From a bacterium (GTDB lineage Bacteria; Vulcanimicrobiota; Xenobia; Xenobiales; JADMJV01): a stretch of 64,000 nt of DNA. The DNA is taken from assembly GCA_018266105.1 (NCBI GenBank), contig JAFEBA010000017.1, positions 61,022 through 125,021 on the forward strand, in the 5' to 3' direction. Position numbers and translations under genes: made by a program. Below, piece by piece: positions 4,960 through 55,467 of this stretch; the first letter of the stretch is position 1, and each line of letters opens with the position of its first letter. The notes below the pieces were generated by a model. The model was not told the DNA's origin, did not search any database, and was given only the letters and a program-made list of their open reading frames with translations.

Positions 4960-5646
4960 GTGCTCGCAGATTTTTTTGACCTTGGAGATGAATCCGTTTA
5001 TCGAATTTTCGACGGATTGACCCTTCCCTGGGAACCCCTGGTTGGCCTGAAAGCCTTCGTGCGCGCCTATCTGGCCGAACACGGCACCCATCGTCCGGCC
5101 GACCTGCCGGAAGGAGTCATCATCCAGGGCGATGTGCACATTCAGGATGGAGCCAAGATCGAACCTGGAGTCTTCATCGGCGGTCCCAGTGTGATTCTGG
5201 CCGGAGCCGAACTGCGCTTCGGGGCCTATGTGCGGGGTGACGTTTTCGCCGCCGAGAAATCCCTCATCGGGCACGACACCGAGGTCAAGCACTCGTTGCT
5301 GCTGCCCGGAGCCAAGGCCGCTCACTTCGCCTATTTGGGCGACTCTATCTTGGGCCGCTCGGTCAACCTGGGTGCGGGAACCAAGCTGGCCAATGTGCGC
5401 GTGGACATGGGCAAAACCAGCGTCAAGGTCAAGATCGATGGCACCATCCACGACAGCGGCCTGCGGAAATTTGGAGCCATCCTGGGGGATCATGTGAGTC
5501 TGGGTTGTAATAGCGTCACCAACCCGGGCACGCTGATAGGAAAGCAGTCGTTGGCCTATGCCCTCTCCAGCCTGGCCGGCTACTATCCCTCGCACAGCCT
5601 AATCAAGCACAAGCAAAATCAGATCGTCGTACGCCGGCATAGTTAG
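4960..5646 (+). CDS. left-handed beta-helix (hexapeptide-repeat) transferase-like protein
   Basis: A 228-residue protein dominated by hexapeptide repeats (about residues 50-200; for example IIQGDVHIQDGAKIEPGVF), which fold into a left-handed beta-helix as in the acetyltransferase half of GlmU and other sugar-nucleotide enzymes. The repeat order and the turn NLGAGTKLANVRVD resemble the C-terminal half of bacterial UDP-GlcNAc pyrophosphorylase-like proteins; the nucleotidyltransferase half is absent. The GTG at 4960 has AAAGGA six bases upstream, so I prefer it to longer versions reading back into the dipeptidase region. The substrate is unknown. Confidence 0.65.
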   Translation: MLADFFDLGDESVYRIFDGLTLPWEPLVGLKAFVRAYLAEHGTHRPADLPEGVIIQGDVHIQDGAKIEPGVFIGGPSVILAGAELRFGAYVRGDVFAAEKSLIGHDTEVKHSLLLPGAKAAHFAYLGDSILGRSVNLGAGTKLANVRVDMGKTSVKVKIDGTIHDSGLRKFGAILGDHVSLGCNSVTNPGTLIGKQSLAYALSSLAGYYPSHSLIKHKQNQIVVRRHS

Positions 5647-5658
5647 GACCCACACACC

Positions 5659-7503
5659 ATGTCACAGCATCTCAGAAATATCGCAATCATCGCTCACATC
5701 GACCACGGTAAAACGACCCTGGTGGACGCCCTGCTGCGCCAATCCGGCGTCTTCCGCCAGAACCAGGAAATGACCGAGCGCGTTATGGACTCCAACGACC
5801 TGGAGCGCGAACGCGGCATCACCATTCTCTCTAAGAACACCTCGATTCAGTTCGGAGAACACACCATCAATATCGTGGACACCCCCGGCCACGCCGACTT
5901 TTCGGGCGAAGTCGAGCGCATTCTGGATATGGTGGACGGAGCGCTGCTGCTGGTGGACGCGGCTGAAGGCCCGATGGCCCAGACCCGCTTCGTGGTTCAG
6001 AAGGCCCTGCACTACGGCCTGGTTCCTATTCTGGTCATCAACAAAATCGACCGCCCCGATGCACGCGTCGAGCAGGTGGTTGACGAAGTGCTGGAGCTCT
6101 TCATCGAGTTAGGCGCCAACGACCAGCAAATCGATTTCCCGATCGTCTATGCCTCGGCCCGCTCCGGGATCGCCGGTTACAAGATGAGCGACGAAATGAA
6201 AAACATGCAGCCCGTCTTCGAGACCGTGGTCAAGCATGTGCCCGCTCCCAAGGGCGACCCCAACGGCCCGCTCCAGATTATGGTAACCAGCCTGGACTAC
6301 GACGACTACATCGGTCGCCTGGCCATCGGGCGCATCAAGCAGGGCACACTCAAAGCCTCACAGCAGATCTCCTTTGGTTCCTCGCTGGAGACCCTGAAAA
6401 CCGGGCGTATCAGCCATCTTTTCCGCTTCGAAGGCCTGAAGCGGGCCCAATCCGACCAGGCCTCGGTGGGCGATATCCTGTGTCTGGCCGGCCTGCCCCA
6501 GATCAGTCTGGGTGACACCATCACGGATAAAGAGAATCCTCTGATGCTGCCGGGTCTGACTATCGATGAGCCGACCCTGGCCATGACCTTCCAGGTCTCC
6601 GACAGTCCCAATGCCGGCAAGGAAGGCAAGTTCGTAACCTCGCGTCAACTGGGCGACCGGCTGCGTAAGGAGGGCGAGCGCAATCCCTCCATGCGCATCA
6701 GTCAGGGTGACTCCACCGACACCTTCGAAGTGTGTGGCCGCGGCGAACTGCATCTGTCCATTTTGCTCGAAACCATGCGCCGTGAAGGATATGAACTGGC
6801 CGTTTCTTCGCCGCGTGTTTTGATGCGTCGCGTCGACGGCGAACTCCAGGAGCCGATGGAAAACTTGACCCTGGACATCCCCGAAGAGTCCATGGGTGCA
6901 GTCATGGAGCGGATGGGCGAGCGCCGCGCGGAAATGACCAATATGACGGGCAGCGGCACCGGACGCATTCGCCTGGAGTTCTTAATCCCCATGCGCGGCC
7001 TGATTGGTTTCCGATCCGAGTTGCTGACCCAGACCCGTGGCTACGGCATCATGAGCCATCTCTCAGCTGGCTTCGGCCCCTACAAGGGAGAACTGGCTCC
7101 GCGCAACCGTGGCGTGCTCATCGCCTCTGAGCCCGGGCCGGTGACCTCTTACGCACTCTTGAACCTGCAGGACCGCGGCGTCTTTTTCGTCGACCCGGGC
7201 GAAGAGGTGTATATGGGTCAGATCGTGGGCGAAAACTGCCGCCCCGGCGACCTGGAAGTGAACATCTGCAAAAAGAAAGCGGTCAACAACATCCGCACCT
7301 CGAACGCGGAAGAGACGGTTAAGCTCAACGTTCCCCGCCGCATGAGCCTGGAACAGGCCCTGGAATATATCGCCGACGACGAGCTGGTGGAAATTACTCC
7401 CACCAAGATTCGCGTGCGCAAGGCCCTGCTCTCGCCCCACGACCGCAACCGGGTGCGCAAGCAGAAGGAAAAGGAAGCCGAGACGGCCTCAGCTAAAAGT
7501 TAA
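5659..7503 (+). CDS. typA: ribosome-associated translational GTPase TypA/BipA
   Basis: A 614-residue GTPase of the normal length for TypA. The N-terminus carries the P-loop AHIDHGKTT, then [10 protein letters not shown] (switch I), DTPGHADF (G3) and NKIDRPDA (G4), followed by domain II, EF-G-like domains and the TypA-specific C-terminal domain. It acts on the 30S/70S ribosome in stress adaptation and ribosome assembly. It starts 12 nt after the beta-helix gene and is probably cotranscribed. The identification is secure. Confidence 0.97.
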
Positions 7504-7591
7504 CCAATCGTTTACAAACAAAGAGGCGGTCCAAGGTCGGATTAACGTTGGAGGCCTACCCTGAGCTTCAAGAAAGTGAGGGTGTGGACAG

Positions 7592-8596
7592 ATGGAGATT
7601 CCCAGCTGGGCAGGTAAAGTCGCAACGGTAGCTGGTCTGAGCAATCCGATCACGGCCCCGGTGGTGGTTGGCAAATGGGTGGCCGATAAGGCCGCCTCGG
7701 CCCTGGGTCCCAAGACGGAAGCGCCCGCTCCAGTCGTGACCCAACCGGCTCCGGCCGCTCCACCCAAACCGGCTGTGATCAACGAGCAGCCTGGCGAGGT
7801 CAAACCCAAGTATAACGAGGATCCAGCTGCCCAGACCAATGGCGCTCAGAAGCTGGTTGGAGGCGACGGCAAATGGAACGGCGCCGACATCCTGAACAGC
7901 CAGACCCAGCTGAGTAAGGACGACCCCAGCTATAAGGCCGAGCAACAGAATCGCTGCGGACCCTCGGCCGTGCTGGCCTCCCAGGTGATGAAAGGCCCCC
8001 AGGCGACCGGAGATTTGGTCGGCAAGCTGGCAGGCAAGGTCGCCGACCAGGAGGGTAAGGATGAACTGATGGCCATTCAGGCCCGCATCAAGGAGGGCCA
8101 GGCCACCCACGAAGATTTGAGCCGGGTCCAGCACTACATGTATAAGCAATACCATGAGCCTGGCCAGAAGCCCGGCCTGACCACCTCTCAGTTGACCCAG
8201 ATGGAGACGGATCTAACCGGCGGCATCAACAAAGAGACGGGCCTGGCCGATTTCGACGGCGGCAAATCTTTCCGTACCACGGCCAAAGACCGTTCCGGCG
8301 TGGAAGAAAGCCCGGACAAGATGAAGGCCCGCCTGGAGAATCTGAAACCCGGCCAGAGCTTTGTTCAGTTCGTGGACACGGACGGCGACAACAAATTCAA
8401 CCACTACGTTCTGATGGGCAAAGACGCCAACGGCCGCTCCTACAGCTACGACCCCATGCCCAAGACCAATCAACCTCAGGTCATCTATCAGGATACCCGG
8501 CCTCAGGCCTACGGCGCCTACGCCGACGGTTCAATGGGCATCCAAGAGGCAGACGGCTCGCGCGGCCAGGCGATGGCTGGCGGCACGCTCAACTAA
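7592..8596 (+). CDS. C39-like (papain-fold) cysteine protease
   Basis: A 334-residue protein. A papain-fold catalytic set is visible: Gln118/119 and Cys122 in EQQNRCGPSA, His271 in FNHYVLMGKD and Asp287 in YSYDPMP, as in peptidase C39-like enzymes. Residues 40-75 are a Pro/Ala-rich disordered linker and there is no Sec signal, so the protein is either cytosolic or exported by another route. No transporter or bacteriocin gene adjoins it, which argues against a role as a leader-peptide peptidase of an exporter. The ATG at 7592 follows a GAGGG. Substrate unknown. Confidence 0.6.
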   Translation: MEIPSWAGKVATVAGLSNPITAPVVVGKWVADKAASALGPKTEAPAPVVTQPAPAAPPKPAVINEQPGEVKPKYNEDPAAQTNGAQKLVGGDGKWNGADILNSQTQLSKDDPSYKAEQQNRCGPSAVLASQVMKGPQATGDLVGKLAGKVADQEGKDELMAIQARIKEGQATHEDLSRVQHYMYKQYHEPGQKPGLTTSQLTQMETDLTGGINKETGLADFDGGKSFRTTAKDRSGVEESPDKMKARLENLKPGQSFVQFVDTDGDNKFNHYVLMGKDANGRSYSYDPMPKTNQPQVIYQDTRPQAYGAYADGSMGIQEADGSRGQAMAGGTLN

Positions 8597-49365: not shown

Positions 49366-50145
49366 ATGCGGGCCTCGCTTCCCTCAATACTCTTCGCCTC
49401 CAGCCTGTTGGGCGGACTGGCCGCGCTGGGCGTAGCCTTCGAATCTCGACCTGAGCCTTCTCAGGGGCAGCTTCGGATTCTCAGTGAACCCTCGGGTGCG
49501 ACCGTTCTGCTGGACAACCGAGAAGTCGGAAAAACTCCTCTCATACAGACCCCCTCCTCAGGCAAACACACGGTCAAGCTTAAGTTGGACGGATTTATCC
49601 CAGAGGAATCAGGAATCTCCTATCGGGAGGGTGAAAGCCAGTCCCTTCACCTGCGCCTTAAGCCACTGGCCGGAACTCTGGTCATCAAAGACCTTGACAA
49701 GGCCAGGGTCCATCTCGGCCCCGGCATCCCTCAGGAACTTGAGGGCAAAGGACCTTGGAAGTTAGCGCCCGGCAACTATGAAATCACCGCCGTGCGCGGC
49801 CCCATCCCCGCCAGGCCCAGGCGCATCGAGATCAAAGCCGGGCAAAACCTGGAGGTCGCCTTGGACTGGCCAGCCCTGCCGGTCGTCCCTCCCCCATTGC
49901 CGGCCGTTCTCCCACCGTCAGGCCAAATCTCGACTCCACCTCCGCCGCCGATCAGCAGTTACGCTCCAAGGCCTCCGGCCTATGTGGCGCCGCGTTACAA
50001 CCAATATCAGCCGCCCCGGCCCGTCTACCGACCGTCGCAGCCTCTTTTCACGCCGATTCCACCCTCCCACGATGAACCACCGCCTCCACCACCCCCGCGG
50101 AGCTACCCGGGCGGCGGAGAGCCGATCTTCACACCCTTGCCCTGA
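49366..50145 (+). CDS. PEGA-domain protein with Pro-rich C-terminus
   Basis: A 259-residue protein with a signal or anchor (residues 5-26). A PEGA domain follows: RILSEPSGATVLLDNREVGKTPL (about residues 35-57), then HTVKLKLDGF and a second beta domain (about 95-160). Residues 165-259 are very Pro-rich (PPPPP and YQPPRPVYRPSQP), as in proteins that span or bind the cell wall. ATG 49366 was chosen for the signal. Its last 43 nt overlap the convergent gene at 50103. Confidence 0.72.
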   Translation: MRASLPSILFASSLLGGLAALGVAFESRPEPSQGQLRILSEPSGATVLLDNREVGKTPLIQTPSSGKHTVKLKLDGFIPEESGISYREGESQSLHLRLKPLAGTLVIKDLDKARVHLGPGIPQELEGKGPWKLAPGNYEITAVRGPIPARPRRIEIKAGQNLEVALDWPALPVVPPPLPAVLPPSGQISTPPPPPISSYAPRPPAYVAPRYNQYQPPRPVYRPSQPLFTPIPPSHDEPPPPPPPRSYPGGGEPIFTPLP

Positions 50146-50783
50146 AGCTCGCGTCGCCAGATCTCGGTCAACTCAGGATCGGGATCAGGCAGTCCCATGC
50201 CCTTCATCAACTCCACCACTTCCAGGCCACTGCGCGCGTCGCGCATTCGCAGGGTAGCGCGGCGCAAAACCTTGAGAGTCAGGAACTGGTTGGCATCCTG
50301 GTCTGGGGAGCTGAAAGCTCGCCGAGCAAAAATATAGGAACGAATCGGATCGAGCTGTTTTTCAGCCAGCAGCGCCCGTCGAAAATTGAGGGCGTAGGAG
50401 CGCGGATTGTACAGCAGCCCCTCGTCCACCAGGTCTACCGCGGCACGGGTTTGCCCATAGCCCTCTTGAAGGTCGTAAGCAATGACATCGTAGGCGTCGG
50501 CAAAGGTGGGGTCAAGGTAAGTCACCATCCGCAACAGTGGAATCACTTCCTTTTGCTGAAAAGCGTCCACCCCGGCTGCATCTTGCTGCTCGTGGTAGAG
50601 GTCGGCCTTAAACCAGAGCACCCGGGCCACCAGGGTTCTTCCCTCCCCCAAAAGATCCAGGAAAAGGTCTTGAGCGCGATAGATAGGCCGGGCCGGTTGA
50701 TAGCGAGCATGCTGACCCACCAGCACCTGAGCCATCGCGGCCACACCCAACCAGCAAAGCAACATGAAAGGCCCTCGCTTCAC
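50103..50783 (-). CDS. secreted TPR-like protein at the end of the YcaO/ABC operon
   Basis: A 226-residue protein with a signal peptide or anchor (MLLCWLGVAAMAQVLVG). Residues 60-190 are TPR-like helices (VIPLLRMVTYLDPTFADAYDV, AVDLVDEGLLYNPRSYALN). It overlaps the upstream gene by 4 nt, which places it last in the operon running from 55261. It may be a periplasmic partner of the exporter; this is inference. Confidence 0.55.
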   Translation of the reverse strand: MKRGPFMLLCWLGVAAMAQVLVGQHARYQPARPIYRAQDLFLDLLGEGRTLVARVLWFKADLYHEQQDAAGVDAFQQKEVIPLLRMVTYLDPTFADAYDVIAYDLQEGYGQTRAAVDLVDEGLLYNPRSYALNFRRALLAEKQLDPIRSYIFARRAFSSPDQDANQFLTLKVLRRATLRMRDARSGLEVVELMKGMGLPDPDPELTEIWRRELQGKGVKIGSPPPG

Positions 50784-51109
50784 CGGACTTTAAACCCCCG
50801 ACGACGTGCGATGTGGAGGTAAACAGGCAGGAGAATCAAGCTGAAAATCCAGGGCATAATGGATTTTCGAGCGATCACGGGGATTCCGATTCCGGCGCGC
50901 TCGCGTTGAGCCTCAGCGATCATCATATTGAAGACGGCCGGCTTGGTCTGATCCTTGGCGCTGGGTGCGGCCTCATTCTCTTCCTCTTTCCCCATAATGT
51001 TACTGAGAGCCTGACGCTTCTCATCCAGCGGAGTCGAGCTGGCCGTGGGGGTGGGTTGGGCCCAGGCCAGACAGGGAAGCAAGCAGCAAAGAACCAGCGC
51101 CAGTCTCAC
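50780..51109 (-). CDS. signal-peptide and one-TM small protein in the YcaO/ABC operon
   Basis: A 109-residue protein with a signal peptide (MRLALVLCCLLPCLAWA) and a C-terminal membrane segment (IMPWIFSLILLPVYLHIA) followed by a basic tail (RRRGFKVR). The middle is polar. It overlaps its neighbours by 4 nt at both ends. It has no Cys after the signal and few Ser or Thr near its end, so it does not look like a YcaO substrate. Function unknown. Confidence 0.55.
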   Translation of the reverse strand: MRLALVLCCLLPCLAWAQPTPTASSTPLDEKRQALSNIMGKEEENEAAPSAKDQTKPAVFNMMIAEAQRERAGIGIPVIARKSIMPWIFSLILLPVYLHIARRRGFKVR

Positions 51110-51882
51110 AGATCCCTCTTTTCGAAGCGAATGCCGGCCAACATGAGAAACAGAGTGACCCAGCCCATCGCGTAAACGAATTCATAGAAATGGTAGCTTG
51201 GGATGATGTGGATGTTGTGAACCACGGGATACTTGAGGCGAAAGACTTCGAAGTTTGGCAGAAAATCGCGAGAGCCGTCCACGATGTTGGCCAGCCACTC
51301 ATTGCCGCGGTCCTCGCGCAGAAAAAAGCGAGTGAAGGCGGTGGAAAGGCCGCCCACCACATACAGGAAAAAGCCCATCACGCCAGCCAGCGGAGGACTG
51401 GCCAGGGTGCTGAAACACAAACAGGCGGCCACCAGCACGGTACATTCCAGGGAGTAACCGAGGGCTGCCGCATACAGGGCCGGGTCAAAATAATGAGAGA
51501 GTCCGGCCACGCCGACCCCGAGGGCCGTGGCCAACAAGAACATACTGCCCACCAGCAAAACAGCCGTTCCCAAGAATTGCCCGGCCAGGTAGGAGACACG
51601 CGCCACCGGGCGCGAGAGGAGCGGGTAGATGGTTTTGCGCTCGATGTCCAGTGGCACCACGCTGGAGCCCAACATCAAAGCCATGGCCACGCCGTAGTAA
51701 CTCAGCAAGGTCAGGCCAAAATCCTTGGCGGTTAACTCAAAGGCCTGCAGGCCCATGCTGAAGGTATTCACGTAAGCCGGCAAAGCCAGCATCACAAACG
51801 CCATAAAGACCGTGATTAAGTGCACCTGACGGCGGACGTTCTCCATCAGCTGCAGACGAGCGATTTCCAGGATAGCTCTCAT
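51106..51882 (-). CDS. ABC-2-type transporter permease
   Basis: A 258-residue membrane protein with six hydrophobic segments. The conserved N-terminal helix IARLQLMENVRRQVHLITVFMAF and SSVVPLDIERKTIYPLLSRPVARVSYLAGQFLG (about residues 72-104) are characteristic of NosY/ABC-2 permeases. It pairs with the ATPase directly upstream (4-nt overlap). The neighbouring YcaO and DUF3299 genes suggest a peptide or metal-linked substrate; this is inference. Confidence 0.85.
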   Translation of the reverse strand: MRAILEIARLQLMENVRRQVHLITVFMAFVMLALPAYVNTFSMGLQAFELTAKDFGLTLLSYYGVAMALMLGSSVVPLDIERKTIYPLLSRPVARVSYLAGQFLGTAVLLVGSMFLLATALGVGVAGLSHYFDPALYAAALGYSLECTVLVAACLCFSTLASPPLAGVMGFFLYVVGGLSTAFTRFFLREDRGNEWLANIVDGSRDFLPNFEVFRLKYPVVHNIHIIPSYHFYEFVYAMGWVTLFLMLAGIRFEKRDL

Positions 51883-52811
51883 GATTTTTTGGCTCCCTGA
51901 GCTCGGGTGATTTGATAAAAGACGTCTTCCAGGCTGTGCTGCACGGTATTCAAACGGCGAATGCTGCAGCCTAGAGTCAGGCAGCGGGCCACAAAGGCGT
52001 CAGCATCTTCTCGACCCAGGGAAACCCGGTGGAGTTCCCCGACCTCATCCGAGACGGGCTCCAGACTCGGAAGCTCGGCCAGCGCCTGAGGGGACGCCTG
52101 CAGCACCAATTCCACCTTCTCGCGGTTCTCGGTCAACTCGGGGATGGTTCCGCAAACCTGCAGCTTGCCGTTGTGAATGATAGCGGCCCGGTCGCAAACC
52201 GCCTCGACCTCGCTCATATAGTGAGACGAAAAGAAAACCGTGATGTTGCGGGCTCGCAAAGCCACCAGAATGTCGCGCAGATCGCGCTGGGCGAATGGGT
52301 CCAAACCAGAGGTCAATTCGTCCAGGATGAGCAGCGGGGGATCTCCGACCAGAGCCTGAGCCACACCGAAGCGCTGTTTAAGTCCTTTGGACAGCTCGGA
52401 GATACGACTGCGACGACGATGGTCTAGCTTAACCGACTCCAGCGAGATCCGGCAGCGTTCTTCCACCTGTTTGTCGGGCACGCCAGCCAGGCGCGCATGA
52501 ATGCGCAGCAACTCCTCGACCGTCATAAACTCGTGGTAAGTGGCCACTTCAGGCAGGTAACCGACCTTGCTGCGAGCAGCCAGTGTGCCGGCCGGCTCCC
52601 CAAAGATTTCCGCCTGACCGGAAGTCGCCTGCGATAGCCCCAGCAAAATCTTAATGCTGGTGGACTTGCCGGCCCCATTAACACCAATATAACCGAAGAT
52701 CTCGCCTACCCTGACTTCCAAGTCCAACCCACGCAAAGCTTCCACTTTCCCGCGTCGGGTTTGATAGGTCTTCGTCAATTGTTGCAATCGAATCGCTAGT
52801 TCGCCTGCCAA
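51879..52811 (-). CDS. ABC transporter ATP-binding protein
   Basis: A 310-residue ATPase with Walker A GVNGAGKST (near residue 43), signature ISELSKGLKQRFG, Walker B LLILDELTSGLDP and switch His in FFSSHYMSEVE. The unusual E in DELTSG replaces the P of DEPTSG but keeps the catalytic Glu. It is of the CcmA/NosF class that pairs with ABC-2 permeases. It overlaps the DUF3299 gene by 16 nt and the permease by 4 nt. Confidence 0.9.
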   Translation of the reverse strand: MAGELAIRLQQLTKTYQTRRGKVEALRGLDLEVRVGEIFGYIGVNGAGKSTSIKILLGLSQATSGQAEIFGEPAGTLAARSKVGYLPEVATYHEFMTVEELLRIHARLAGVPDKQVEERCRISLESVKLDHRRRSRISELSKGLKQRFGVAQALVGDPPLLILDELTSGLDPFAQRDLRDILVALRARNITVFFSSHYMSEVEAVCDRAAIIHNGKLQVCGTIPELTENREKVELVLQASPQALAELPSLEPVSDEVGELHRVSLGREDADAFVARCLTLGCSIRRLNTVQHSLEDVFYQITRAQGAKKS

Positions 52812-53296
52812 CCTGTCGGCTTCCCTTCTTGAATTTCCACTCTTTCGGCCACCATTCTGTACAGAGAGACGACTGCCCCTTCCTCAATTTGCTCACCAAC
52901 CTCAAAAGTTCCCTCCACCGCCAGAGGTCGATCCATATTCATTGGGACAGCTGTGCCGGGCCGAAAACGGACCAGAACCCATTCATTCATGGCCGGAGTC
53001 TTACCATAGCAGCACAGCGCTTGATTGCGCACCAACACGAAAGAGGCCACATTTTCGCCATCCATTTCAACCGGCATCATGTAGCCCACGACCCGGAGAG
53101 ACCGACCGTTCAGTCCTGTAATCGCCCGCGGCAAGCTCACGGGATGAGGCTTTTTAGAGAGAGGCGATAGGCTGGGAGTATAGGCGAAACTGGCAAGTTC
53201 TTTCCAGGAGATATCTCGGAACTCTATTTTGGGGCCACCACAGGCGAATAAGAGGGCAGACAGCAAACCGTAAATCAACACTTGAAGCCTACGCAT
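52796..53296 (-). CDS. DUF3299-family lipoprotein
   Basis: A 166-residue lipoprotein: MRRLQVLIYGLLSALLFACGG gives lipobox Cys19. The mature part shows RVVGYMMPVEMDGENVASFVLVRNQALCCYGKTPAMNEWV, the DUF3299 pattern with a Cys-Cys pair and a Met-rich loop, which suggests binding of a soft metal. The family is often encoded beside ABC-2 transporters of the NosFY kind, as here. Function is otherwise unknown. Confidence 0.75.
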   Translation of the reverse strand: MRRLQVLIYGLLSALLFACGGPKIEFRDISWKELASFAYTPSLSPLSKKPHPVSLPRAITGLNGRSLRVVGYMMPVEMDGENVASFVLVRNQALCCYGKTPAMNEWVLVRFRPGTAVPMNMDRPLAVEGTFEVGEQIEEGAVVSLYRMVAERVEIQEGKPTGWQAN

Positions 53297-53336
53297 TTCT
53301 TAGCTCCAGGGTTCAACCGGGTTCATGCAAACCCTA

Positions 53337-54791
53337 TCAACTGAACGGGTGAAACGGCGGCTTGCCGCCGATTCCGAGTCCACGCAGAGATGGTGATAGG
53401 ACCTTCACCACGGTCCATCCCATCATTTCCGCCCAGGCACACTCCAACCTGCACCAATAAATCCTCTCCTCGCCCAGCAATTCCCGCCACTGCGGGCAAG
53501 GGGGTTGGTCCGCCTCAATCGGCAAGGAAACCATCTCCTTCCATCGAGGAACTGGCTCACGCCAACCCCAGGCTGCATGGTCGGCAAAACTGGAACAATG
53601 CGATGGGACAGCAGGTTGCTGGCGCGAGAGAACCTGAAAATTGTGCTTCGCTTCCTGGCGGGCTCTCTCGACGCCCTTTGGCCCGGCGGCACTCCCCCAG
53701 GCACCCCGGCCCCGACGACCACGAAAAGCCAGGAAAACAGGCCCGGGCAACATCCACAAATCCGAGGCCAGGCGCCTCAGATCGGTCGCCCTGCCCGAGC
53801 GCCAGGCCCGCCACCATCGGCGCAGGGCGTCTCGTTCCAGTAACTCCCAAAAGCCCGCCTGCAGCGCCTGGCTCAAACTGGGGCCGCAAGCCAGCCCGTG
53901 ACTTAACTGCTGCCCGTGAGGGCGAGGCACCTCGCCCAAGTAAACCAGTCCGCTCCAACAATGGCGCCCCCCCCTGAAGCCCAGGCGGCGCACCCAAATC
54001 CTTTCTTGAGAACACGGTTGAAGGGCGGCCCAACGCTCGAAGAACTCAGCCAGTGCGGCCCTTCGCGCCTTGCCCCGGTCATGGTTGGCACCGCTTGAAG
54101 CGGCCGAGCCCAGACGCAAACTGACCCGCCACAACCCACCCTGTCGCCTCTCCACCAGGTTCTGAATGGGCCCGCAGACAGGATGTACCCAGCTCTCCCA
54201 GGTGGGAATCCAATCCACACTGGCCCCGCAATCGCAATCGGGATGGGGCAGAACTCGCCCTCTGTAGAGCTTGCCACCTCGCAAGTAGTGGAGCCAACCA
54301 GGATCAGGGGCCTCAGGAAGGCGGGATTCGCCCGGCCAGCTAAGACTGAAATCGGGCCAGGCTTCCAGACGTTGCCACCATTCCGACCCGTGATGACGTC
54401 CCATCCACCAGCACATGAGGCAGCCCAGACAGGGCAGTCCAGACTGATAGTGATAGCGCCAACAGCCGCCCTCGCCGTCCCCCTCCAGGGTGTAGACGCC
54501 CGGGTGCTTCAGAGACTTCCAAAGCGAGGGCTGAAAGGCTAGCCCCGAAGCCTCTTGCGGAGGCTCCCAGCTCAGGGCGCCCTGGCTGCGCAGAAACTCT
54601 CCGAAAGGAACTTCCTGGGGCGAGAGCTGGCGAGGCTGCTCCAGGGACGCAAGGAGTTGCCGAAGCACAGGCACGAGTGCGGCGTCTTCAATCAGTTGCC
54701 AGCCAGAAAATGAATTTGCCCAGACGAGAGAAGTCCCGTCCGGGCAAAAGTAGACCGGCTGAGAGCCGGATCTATAGTAGACTTTGGAAAT
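53337..54791 (-). CDS. YcaO-domain cyclodehydratase (TOMM/RiPP type), possible ATT start
   Basis: A YcaO enzyme, which uses ATP to turn Cys, Ser or Thr of a peptide into azolines, or backbone amides into thioamides. The YcaO core has ALAEFFERW and ELLERDALRRWW (ATP/Mg-binding Glu residues), and the C-terminus ends GKPPFHPF, similar to the Pro-rich tails of TOMM cyclodehydratases. A CLGCLMC zinc motif lies in the N-terminal half. The first canonical start, GTG 54674, gives 445 residues, but 39 upstream codons are open and read like a peptide-binding (RRE-like) domain, VYFCPDGTSLVWANSFSGW. They reach an ATT at 54791 that overlaps the preceding stop codon (TAATT). I include the extension. Confidence 0.75.
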   Translation of the reverse strand: MSKVYYRSGSQPVYFCPDGTSLVWANSFSGWQLIEDAALVPVLRQLLASLEQPRQLSPQEVPFGEFLRSQGALSWEPPQEASGLAFQPSLWKSLKHPGVYTLEGDGEGGCWRYHYQSGLPCLGCLMCWWMGRHHGSEWWQRLEAWPDFSLSWPGESRLPEAPDPGWLHYLRGGKLYRGRVLPHPDCDCGASVDWIPTWESWVHPVCGPIQNLVERRQGGLWRVSLRLGSAASSGANHDRGKARRAALAEFFERWAALQPCSQERIWVRRLGFRGGRHCWSGLVYLGEVPRPHGQQLSHGLACGPSLSQALQAGFWELLERDALRRWWRAWRSGRATDLRRLASDLWMLPGPVFLAFRGRRGRGAWGSAAGPKGVERARQEAKHNFQVLSRQQPAVPSHCSSFADHAAWGWREPVPRWKEMVSLPIEADQPPCPQWRELLGEERIYWCRLECAWAEMMGWTVVKVLSPSLRGLGIGGKPPFHPFS

Positions 54792-55261
54792 TAGTAACGG
54801 CTGGAACGGCTATCGCCGCGACCACCGCGGTCATATCCGCCGCCACCGCCGCCACCGCCGCCACGACGTGGCGGGCTGTGGGAAGAGAAACAATCCCGGC
54901 AGTATACCGGACGCGAACCGCTCGGCTGGAAGGGAACTTGCGTTTCCTTGCCACACTCGGCGCAGACAGCGTCGAACATTTCGCGGCGCGGGGCGCCGAA
55001 GCTTCCACCGCCTCCGCCAAATCCGCCGCGGTCTCCACCGCTGCTTCCGAATCCACCGCGATCTCCACCGCGGCCTCCGCGGTCGCTGAATCCGCTACCA
55101 CCGCCACCGTCACGGGACGAACGACGGTTTTGGCGACAATTGCTGCAGCGCCGGGGCTCGTTGGTGAAACCTTTGGAGGAGTGGAACTCCTGCTCACCGG
55201 CCGTGAACGTGAACGGCGCCTTGCAATCTATACAGGTTAGGGTTTTGTCTACGAATGACAC
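54791..55261 (-). CDS. zinc-ribbon protein with RGG/Gly-rich linkers
   Basis: A 156-residue protein with two zinc ribbons: FVDKTLTCIDCKAPFTFTAG with RRCSNC (residues 2-40), as in the probable zinc-ribbon family PF13451, and VCAECGKETQVPFQPSG with PVYCRDC (about 95-125). Gly/Arg-rich segments (RGGRGGDRGGFG; a run of nine Gly) join and follow them, typical of RNA-binding proteins. GTG 55261 has GGAG eight bases upstream. It is the first gene of the operon with the YcaO enzyme. Confidence 0.78.
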   Translation of the reverse strand: MSFVDKTLTCIDCKAPFTFTAGEQEFHSSKGFTNEPRRCSNCRQNRRSSRDGGGGSGFSDRGGRGGDRGGFGSSGGDRGGFGGGGGSFGAPRREMFDAVCAECGKETQVPFQPSGSRPVYCRDCFSSHSPPRRGGGGGGGGGYDRGGRGDSRSSRY

Positions 55262-55422
55262 TCGACAGGCTCCTTGATGACTTATGTAGAGCTCGGCTGT
55301 CGAGGCACGACTGTTGTCCCTAGGGTTTGGGTTGTGTCTACGCTCCCACCCCAACTCGAGCGCAAACAACAGGAAATCTCGAACGACCTTGCTACTGTGT
55401 GGGGAAATTCCCCCACCAAGTC

Positions 55423-55452
55423 AGGGTAGCGCATGGGGTCCTTCTGTGTCAA
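55423..55452 (-). promoter_or_regulatory. sigma-70-type promoter of the zinc-ribbon/YcaO operon
   Basis: On the minus strand TTGACA (complement of 55447-55452) is followed after 18 nt by TACCCT (complement of 55423-55428). Transcription would begin near 55416, giving a leader of about 155 nt that includes the palindrome GGGGAAATTCCCC (55401-55413). Confidence 0.6.
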
Positions 55453-55467
55453 CTAAAATAAGGCCTT

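What the first reader, a model, noticed from the sequence alone, without database searches (positions are those of the whole stretch)
50103..55452. Seven-gene YcaO cyclodehydratase / ABC exporter operon without an obvious precursor
Seen: seven minus-strand genes (zinc-ribbon RGG protein, YcaO enzyme, DUF3299 lipoprotein, ABC ATPase, ABC-2 permease, signal/TM protein, TPR protein) follow one promoter; four junctions overlap by 4 to 16 nt and the zinc-ribbon/YcaO stop and start abut. The YcaO protein has a zinc motif, a possible peptide-binding N-terminus and a PHPF-like tail, all features of TOMM RiPP cyclodehydratases. Established: TOMM loci commonly pair a YcaO enzyme with an ABC exporter. 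Inferred: this may be a peptide-modification and export locus of a new type, with the DUF3299 lipoprotein suggesting a metal-related product. No Cys/Ser/Thr-rich short ORF was found inside the operon.
Basis: partly seen in the sequence, partly recalled or inferred. Interest (0 to 1): 0.72.

Follow-up and report, generated by a model that had tools for sequence, protein, structure and literature searches.

The report
Orphan peptide-modifying enzyme with hidden start
A draft genome related to the Vulcanimicrobiota holds a compact gene predicted to encode a peptide-modifying enzyme; the gene is missing or broken in two close relatives that keep the transporter genes beside it, and part of its predicted substrate-grip domain lies ahead of every standard start codon, so its substrate likely lies elsewhere in the genome.

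Summary
The seven genes are there, but they are not one peptide-export system. Same-genus genome G002 has the whole block without the YcaO gene; in G004 the YcaO gene is broken while the transporter genes are intact; in G005 the DUF3299/ABC/TPR genes exist with no YcaO found. ABC ATPase, permease and TPR homologues sit together without YcaO in 10 of 11 permease loci examined. The YcaO reading frame runs 36 codons upstream of the first ATG/GTG/TTG, through a strong terminator-like hairpin whose counterpart G002 also has behind the zinc-finger gene. Those 36 residues resemble relatives with ordinary starts and complete a predicted RRE fold (AlphaFold pLDDT 92.5), though their substitution pattern alone does not show translation. 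The protein is a shrunken one-chain relative of LynD/TruD: RRE, zinc-binding E1-like remnant, YcaO. Relatives lie behind other genes, one directly behind ribosomal protein L20. Seven active-site positions are kept in 28 of 28 members, while K61, N181 and N187 are kept in 0 and E191 and Q293 in 1. No precursor, TfuA or SagB was found. Likely an orphan RRE-guided amide-activating enzyme; substrate and start codon are unknown.

The parts
53337..54782 (-). YcaO-family gene as I read it (481 codons plus stop); first standard start GTG at 54674
54675..54782 (-). 36 codons of the YcaO frame upstream of any ATG/GTG/TTG; strands of the predicted RRE
54552..54782 (-). predicted RRE domain, residues 1-77
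54222..54548 (-). E1-like remnant with cysteines C118, C121, C183, C185 (481-residue numbering), residues 79-187
   Evidence: zinc binding inferred
53340..54209 (-). YcaO domain, residues 192-481
54715..54748 (-). terminator-like hairpin (15 bp stem, T-rich tail) inside the YcaO frame
54755..54769 (-). small upstream hairpin, also inside the YcaO frame
54789..54791 (-). ATT codon overlapping the zinc-finger gene's stop (TAATT); AT[TC] in frame at this aligned place in the 3 intact same-genus genes; possible non-standard start
   Evidence: function inferred
54791..55261 (-). treble-clef zinc-finger / RGG protein gene
52796..53296 (-). DUF3299 lipoprotein; part of the YcaO-independent block
51879..52811 (-). 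ABC ATPase; YcaO-independent
51106..51882 (-). ABC-2 permease; YcaO-independent
50780..51109 (-). signal/TM protein; YcaO-independent
50103..50783 (-).

Best explanation
The YcaO gene is a single gene set into a conserved gene block that close relatives keep without it, and it encodes a compact one-chain protein predicted to fold as a leader-binding RRE, an E1-like remnant that likely holds zinc, and a YcaO domain, which likely activates backbone amides of a peptide encoded elsewhere in the genome. In the inferred reaction the RRE pairs with a leader segment of the substrate, and the YcaO domain uses a nucleotide and Mg to phosphorylate a backbone amide, giving azolines or a related amide product. 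No azole-forming oxidase of the SagB type was found, so oxidation to azoles is less likely. Translation of the RRE is likely coupled to the upstream gene, by re-initiation at a near-cognate codon at or near its stop. Ribosomes that enter this frame would run through the terminator hairpin, so read-through into YcaO could favour itself (inferred). The ABC/DUF3299/TPR genes next door are a separate system. Shown: synteny, empty site, broken copy, open frame, motif counts. Predicted: folds. Inferred: substrate type, chemistry, zinc, start mechanism.
Confidence: 0.5

Rival explanations
1. It modifies a folded cellular protein rather than a RiPP precursor, as E. coli YcaO thioamidates ribosomal protein uL16.
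For: No precursor nearby; one relative overlaps rplT; PMC13063428 (abstract, passages, sections 30 and 33 seen) shows an orphan YcaO acting on uL16 and raises the same possibility for others.
Against: This family has an RRE-like N-terminus, which E. coli YcaO lacks, and three members measured are basic (pI 9.1-10.5), opposite to the acidic uL16 group. TfuA not found, though E. coli lacks it too.
Confidence: 0.2
2. It is a catalytically altered YcaO that binds a peptide through the RRE and acts as a carrier or regulator, not as an ATP-driven enzyme.
For: K61, N181, N187 kept in 0 of 28, E191 and Q293 in 1 of 28.
Against: E75, E78, R79, E199, E202, R203 and E290 kept in 28 of 28; purifying selection.
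Confidence: 0.15
3. The 36 upstream codons are not translated; they are conserved because they form the zinc-finger gene's terminator, and the protein starts at GTG 54674 without a complete RRE.
For: Codons 1-22 are nearly frozen (5, 7 and 8 of 22 codons differ in the three pairs), as a hairpin would be; codons 23-36 lack third-position bias; G002 has a homologous hairpin without YcaO, though with a weaker fold score (z -2.4); gene callers start 9 of the 15 relatives in A1 at residue 37 or 39.
Against: G003 has no standard start before codon 52, yet its codons 37-51 change mostly at third positions; relatives carry similar residues behind annotated upstream starts; the residues complete the RRE.
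Confidence: 0.15
4. YcaO plus the ABC genes form a peptide modification and export locus.
For: Adjacent genes on one strand in G000, G001 and G003.
Against: Block without YcaO in G002 and G005, broken YcaO with intact ABC in G004.
Confidence: 0.05
5. The YcaO protein is made as a -1 frameshift fusion to the zinc-finger protein.
For: The YcaO frame is the -1 frame and is open through the zinc-finger stop in G000, G001 and G003.
Against: No slippery heptamer seen by eye; the linker is not conserved.
Confidence: 0.05

Closest known systems
LynD / TruD fused cyanobactin cyclodehydratases
   Same: E1-like part and YcaO domain in one chain; best Foldseek hits
   Different: 481 aa against 775-781; E1 part cut down to residues 79-187; nucleoside-side residues replaced; no gene cluster found
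McbBCD microcin B17 synthetase
   Different: separate chains, with their own precursor and export genes (recalled)
E. coli YcaO (uL16 thioamidation, PMC13063428)
   Same: YcaO gene with no precursor nearby
   Different: no RRE and acidic pI in E. coli YcaO
MccB / PbtF / TbiB1 peptide-binding domains
   Same: N-terminal 77 residues align over the domain
   Different: two helices of 4 or more residues in the model rather than three; low Z

Membership tests
fused azoline-forming YcaO cyclodehydratase (LynD/TruD type) | YcaO domain | tested here: met
fused azoline-forming YcaO cyclodehydratase (LynD/TruD type) | E1-like zinc-binding part in the same chain | tested here: met
fused azoline-forming YcaO cyclodehydratase (LynD/TruD type) | conserved ATP/Mg residues | tested here: inconclusive
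   7 positions kept in 28 of 28; K61, N181, N187 in 0, E191 and Q293 in 1 of 28
fused azoline-forming YcaO cyclodehydratase (LynD/TruD type) | C-terminal PxP motif (PMC7136475 passage) | tested here: inconclusive
   window ends PPFHPFS (PxxP), relatives end PHPFA or PHPFG (PxP)
fused azoline-forming YcaO cyclodehydratase (LynD/TruD type) | TIGR03604 over its curated cut-off | tested here: not met
   38.8 bits against 219.25
TOMM RiPP gene cluster | precursor gene nearby | tested here: not met
   14 intergenic ORFs of 15-120 aa in 47-59 kb, none precursor-like; short ORFs overlapping genes were not judged
TOMM RiPP gene cluster | SagB-type azoline oxidase | tested here: not met
   TIGR03605 no match in own genome, positive in 8 of 14 controls; genome 94.7% complete
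TOMM RiPP gene cluster | dedicated exporter | tested here: not met
   the ABC genes occur without YcaO
[quoted passage not shown]
TfuA-YcaO thioamide synthetase | TfuA | tested here: not met
   PF07812 no match in own genome, positive in 1 of 14 controls
E. coli YcaO uL16 group | acidic pI, no RRE | tested here: not met
   pI 9.1-10.5 in three members; RRE-like N-terminus

The most novel reading that the evidence does not exclude
A family of solo, miniaturised RRE-zinc-YcaO enzymes with a rewritten nucleotide pocket lodges directly behind unrelated genes in Vulcanimicrobiota. In two unrelated places its members start without ATG, GTG or TTG, at near-cognate codons at or near the stop of the gene ahead, and in this clade that gene's terminator doubles as RRE coding sequence, so translation and transcription of the enzyme are gated together.
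Probability: 0.27. Interest if true: 0.72.

Novelty: new variant of a known kind. Interest (0 to 1): 0.5.

Why it matters
Orphan YcaO enzymes have recently been shown to act outside RiPP clusters (uL16 thioamidation, PMC13063428). This family adds a one-gene version that keeps a substrate-grip domain but has no precursor in sight, so its substrate could be a distant peptide or a cellular protein. The near-complete loss of five nucleoside-side residues, with seven other active-site positions kept in all 28 members, poses a direct test of how YcaO enzymes hold ATP. If the non-standard start is real, gene callers cut off part of the RRE in many members (9 of 15 relatives in alignment A1 and the four L20-type proteins begin at residue 37-39), so such enzymes are under-annotated. 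The empty site and the broken copy are a caution against reading gene adjacency as a biosynthetic operon.

Tried and rejected
Exporter operon: rejected on synteny. Precursor search: 14 intergenic ORFs of 15-120 aa in 47-59 kb; the best conserved ones lie in the zinc-finger gene's 5' leader and are conserved on both strands, so the constraint looks like one on nucleotides rather than on a peptide. Other routes: TfuA and SagB not found, with positive controls; Nif11 not found (3 controls positive); NHLP not found, but its control was empty, so uninformative. Rfam gave nothing at 49-58 kb up to E 1. A first genome-contig scan with the single protein returned no relative, a miss of that method, since the profile scan then found 16 loci: L094-L097 are genomes already in hand, L098-L109 are weak or partial matches that I did not examine further (L098 only by one pattern). 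Papers: searches. In one search none of the 7 papers naming the phylum held the word YcaO. DUF3299: 4 papers listed, none opened. The E. coli ATP-contact residues beyond E202 were not found in a held paper and are recalled (Dunbar 2014, not read). G148 and G147 carry further YcaO-like proteins without the S[HN]G...ExxER pattern I scanned for; not pursued.

Limits: five of 30 phylum loci gave no usable frame and were dropped, and of the 25 kept L021 was read in a wrong frame and L044 may be (long branch); without these two the controls keep K61, N181, N187, E191, Q293 in 22, 21, 20, 21, 20 of 23. L021 was left out; E. coli and L044 have long branches. dS values are saturated. P0001 is the window's own protein, so there are 16 relatives, one (P0011) partial; only the 8000 candidates sharing most words were scored. 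A3 holds 28 rows; P0001, P0006, P0011, P0012, P0013, P0018, P0031 and the masked L014 gene were left out. hides ABC ATPase hits under 130 bits; four of its 13 loci come from one genome (G005), and one is a second copy in the window's own genome.
Full report
Where it is. The window is part of contig 60 of an 8.4 Mb draft genome (94.7% complete). Its named relatives are MAGs of Vulcanimicrobiota / Candidatus Eremiobacterota. The genome holds one YcaO match by PF02624; 46 of 149 genomes of the phylum have any.

Observation. All seven genes exist. The overlaps are real (16, 4, 4, 4 nt). The claim that the zinc-finger stop abuts the YcaO start fails for standard start codons: the first ATG/GTG/TTG of the YcaO frame lies at 54674, 116 nt downstream of the stop, and a strong terminator-like hairpin sits between (54748-54715; fold z -7.0, 0 of 200 shuffles as stable).

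The YcaO gene and the transporter genes are separable. I located the window's genes in the four other genomes of the genus. G003 and G001 carry the block from the phosphoglycerate mutase gene to the ARPP-1 gene in the same order with YcaO (the G001 contig ends in the mutase gene). G002 carries the same block with no YcaO: its zinc-finger stop and DUF3299 start are 157 nt apart on one contig. G004 carries the zinc-finger and transporter sides on two contigs, and its YcaO is frameshifted and lacks the YcaO domain, the sequence passing from the cysteine region straight to the C-terminal tail within one contig. In G005, another genus of the family, DUF3299, ABC ATPase, permease and TPR genes are together, while neither the protein nor the family search finds a YcaO. 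The permease gene is found in 14 of 18 genomes of the class. Of the 13 loci I fetched for comparison, 11 have a permease; 10 of these have ATPase and TPR homologues beside it, and none of the 13 has a YcaO hit. The transporter is therefore a unit that does not need YcaO.

The hidden start. The first 36 residues of that model lie upstream of every ATG, GTG and TTG in the frame. In G000, G003 and G001 the first standard start is codon 37, 52 and 36. The residues align with the N-termini of relatives that begin at annotated upstream starts (P0016 20 of 36 identical, P0019 12 of 36, L017 9 of 35), and they form the strands of the predicted RRE (pLDDT 92-96). In G003, codons 37-51 precede its first standard start and still differ from G000 and G001 mostly at third positions (11 of 17 and 10 of 17), so they look translated. 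Codons 23-36 do not show this (5 of 14, 5 of 11, 4 of 9), and codons 1-22, which cover the hairpin, are nearly frozen. The case for translation of residues 1-36 therefore rests on homology and fold, not on substitutions. G002, without YcaO, has a homologous hairpin behind the same zinc-finger gene, with a weaker fold score (z -2.4, 3 of 200 shuffles as stable). Three codons before the domain the three intact genes have AT[TC] in frame (the broken G004 copy has ATC out of frame); in G000 and G001 it overlaps the zinc-finger stop. In G006 a relative (L018) lies behind ribosomal protein L20, its frame begins with CTG overlapping the L20 stop (CTGA), and its first standard start is again codon 37. 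Termination-reinitiation at overlapping genes is known in bacteria (PMC6728339, title and start of abstract seen in the listing). Use of near-cognate codons here is inference. A frameshift fusion is not excluded.

The active site. On an alignment with E. coli YcaO (L093) and 25 other YcaO frames of the phylum, the family keeps E75, E78, R79, E199, E202, R203 and E290 in 28 of 28, and position 286 is R or K in 28 of 28. K61, N181 and N187 are kept in 0 of 28 (N181 is H in all 28), E191 and Q293 in 1 of 28. The other YcaOs keep K61, N181, N187, E191 and Q293 in 22, 22, 20, 21 and 20 of 25. That E202 matters comes from PMC13063428 (E202A in a figure legend); the roles of the other residues, and the split into metal side and nucleoside side, are recalled. 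The simplest reading is that metal and phosphate are still held while the nucleoside is held differently, or that the nucleotide has changed.

Family and selection. The 28 members form one side of a branch (92/99). YcaO evolves under purifying selection (dN/dS 0.15-0.18, like DUF3299 at 0.17-0.19 and less constrained than the ABC genes at 0.04-0.08; dS saturated). Members whose DNA I could read sit behind a zinc-finger gene, behind rplT, and at two other places.

How it likely works. The RRE would bind the leader of a substrate encoded elsewhere and the YcaO domain would activate backbone amides. The substrate is not known, and none was found near the gene. TfuA and SagB are not found, so thioamide formation by the TfuA route and azole formation are less likely than azolines. 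A protein substrate, as for E. coli YcaO on uL16, is the main rival.

Verdict. The exporter reading falls. What remains is a new variant of a known kind, with a start-codon puzzle that a simple experiment can settle.

Noticed in passing
window 55262-55467 (-): The 206 nt between the phosphoglycerate mutase gene and the zinc-finger gene are strongly conserved: the 139-nt query 55262-55400 matches at 90-97% in the 4 other genomes of the genus and in none of the other 13 of 18 class genomes; no Rfam match. It may be a structured 5' leader.
   Followed up: partly
L018:8979-8982: A related YcaO frame in G006 overlaps the rplT stop by 4 nt as CTGA, with no standard start until codon 37.
   Followed up: partly
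G004: L015 / L016: The orthologous YcaO is a broken copy (frameshifts, YcaO domain gone) next to intact ABC genes, while another YcaO of the family (L014) lies elsewhere in that genome.
   Followed up: yes
G000:C107:89151-89921: Second copy of the permease (67% identity) with ATPase and TPR homologues beside it in the window's own genome.
   Followed up: no
L115 (about 5420-7762, -) and L116 (2-1162, +): Other YcaO-family proteins of the class (over the PF02624 cut-off) that end in PHPF but do not show the S[HN]G...ExxER pattern I scanned for.
   Followed up: no
window 50103-50145: The TPR-like gene (-) and the PEGA-domain gene (+) overlap tail to tail by 43 nt.
   Followed up: no
L014:6676-7356 (-): A nitroreductase-family gene (PF00881) lies near the relative in G004; possible oxidase partner or chance.
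   Followed up: no
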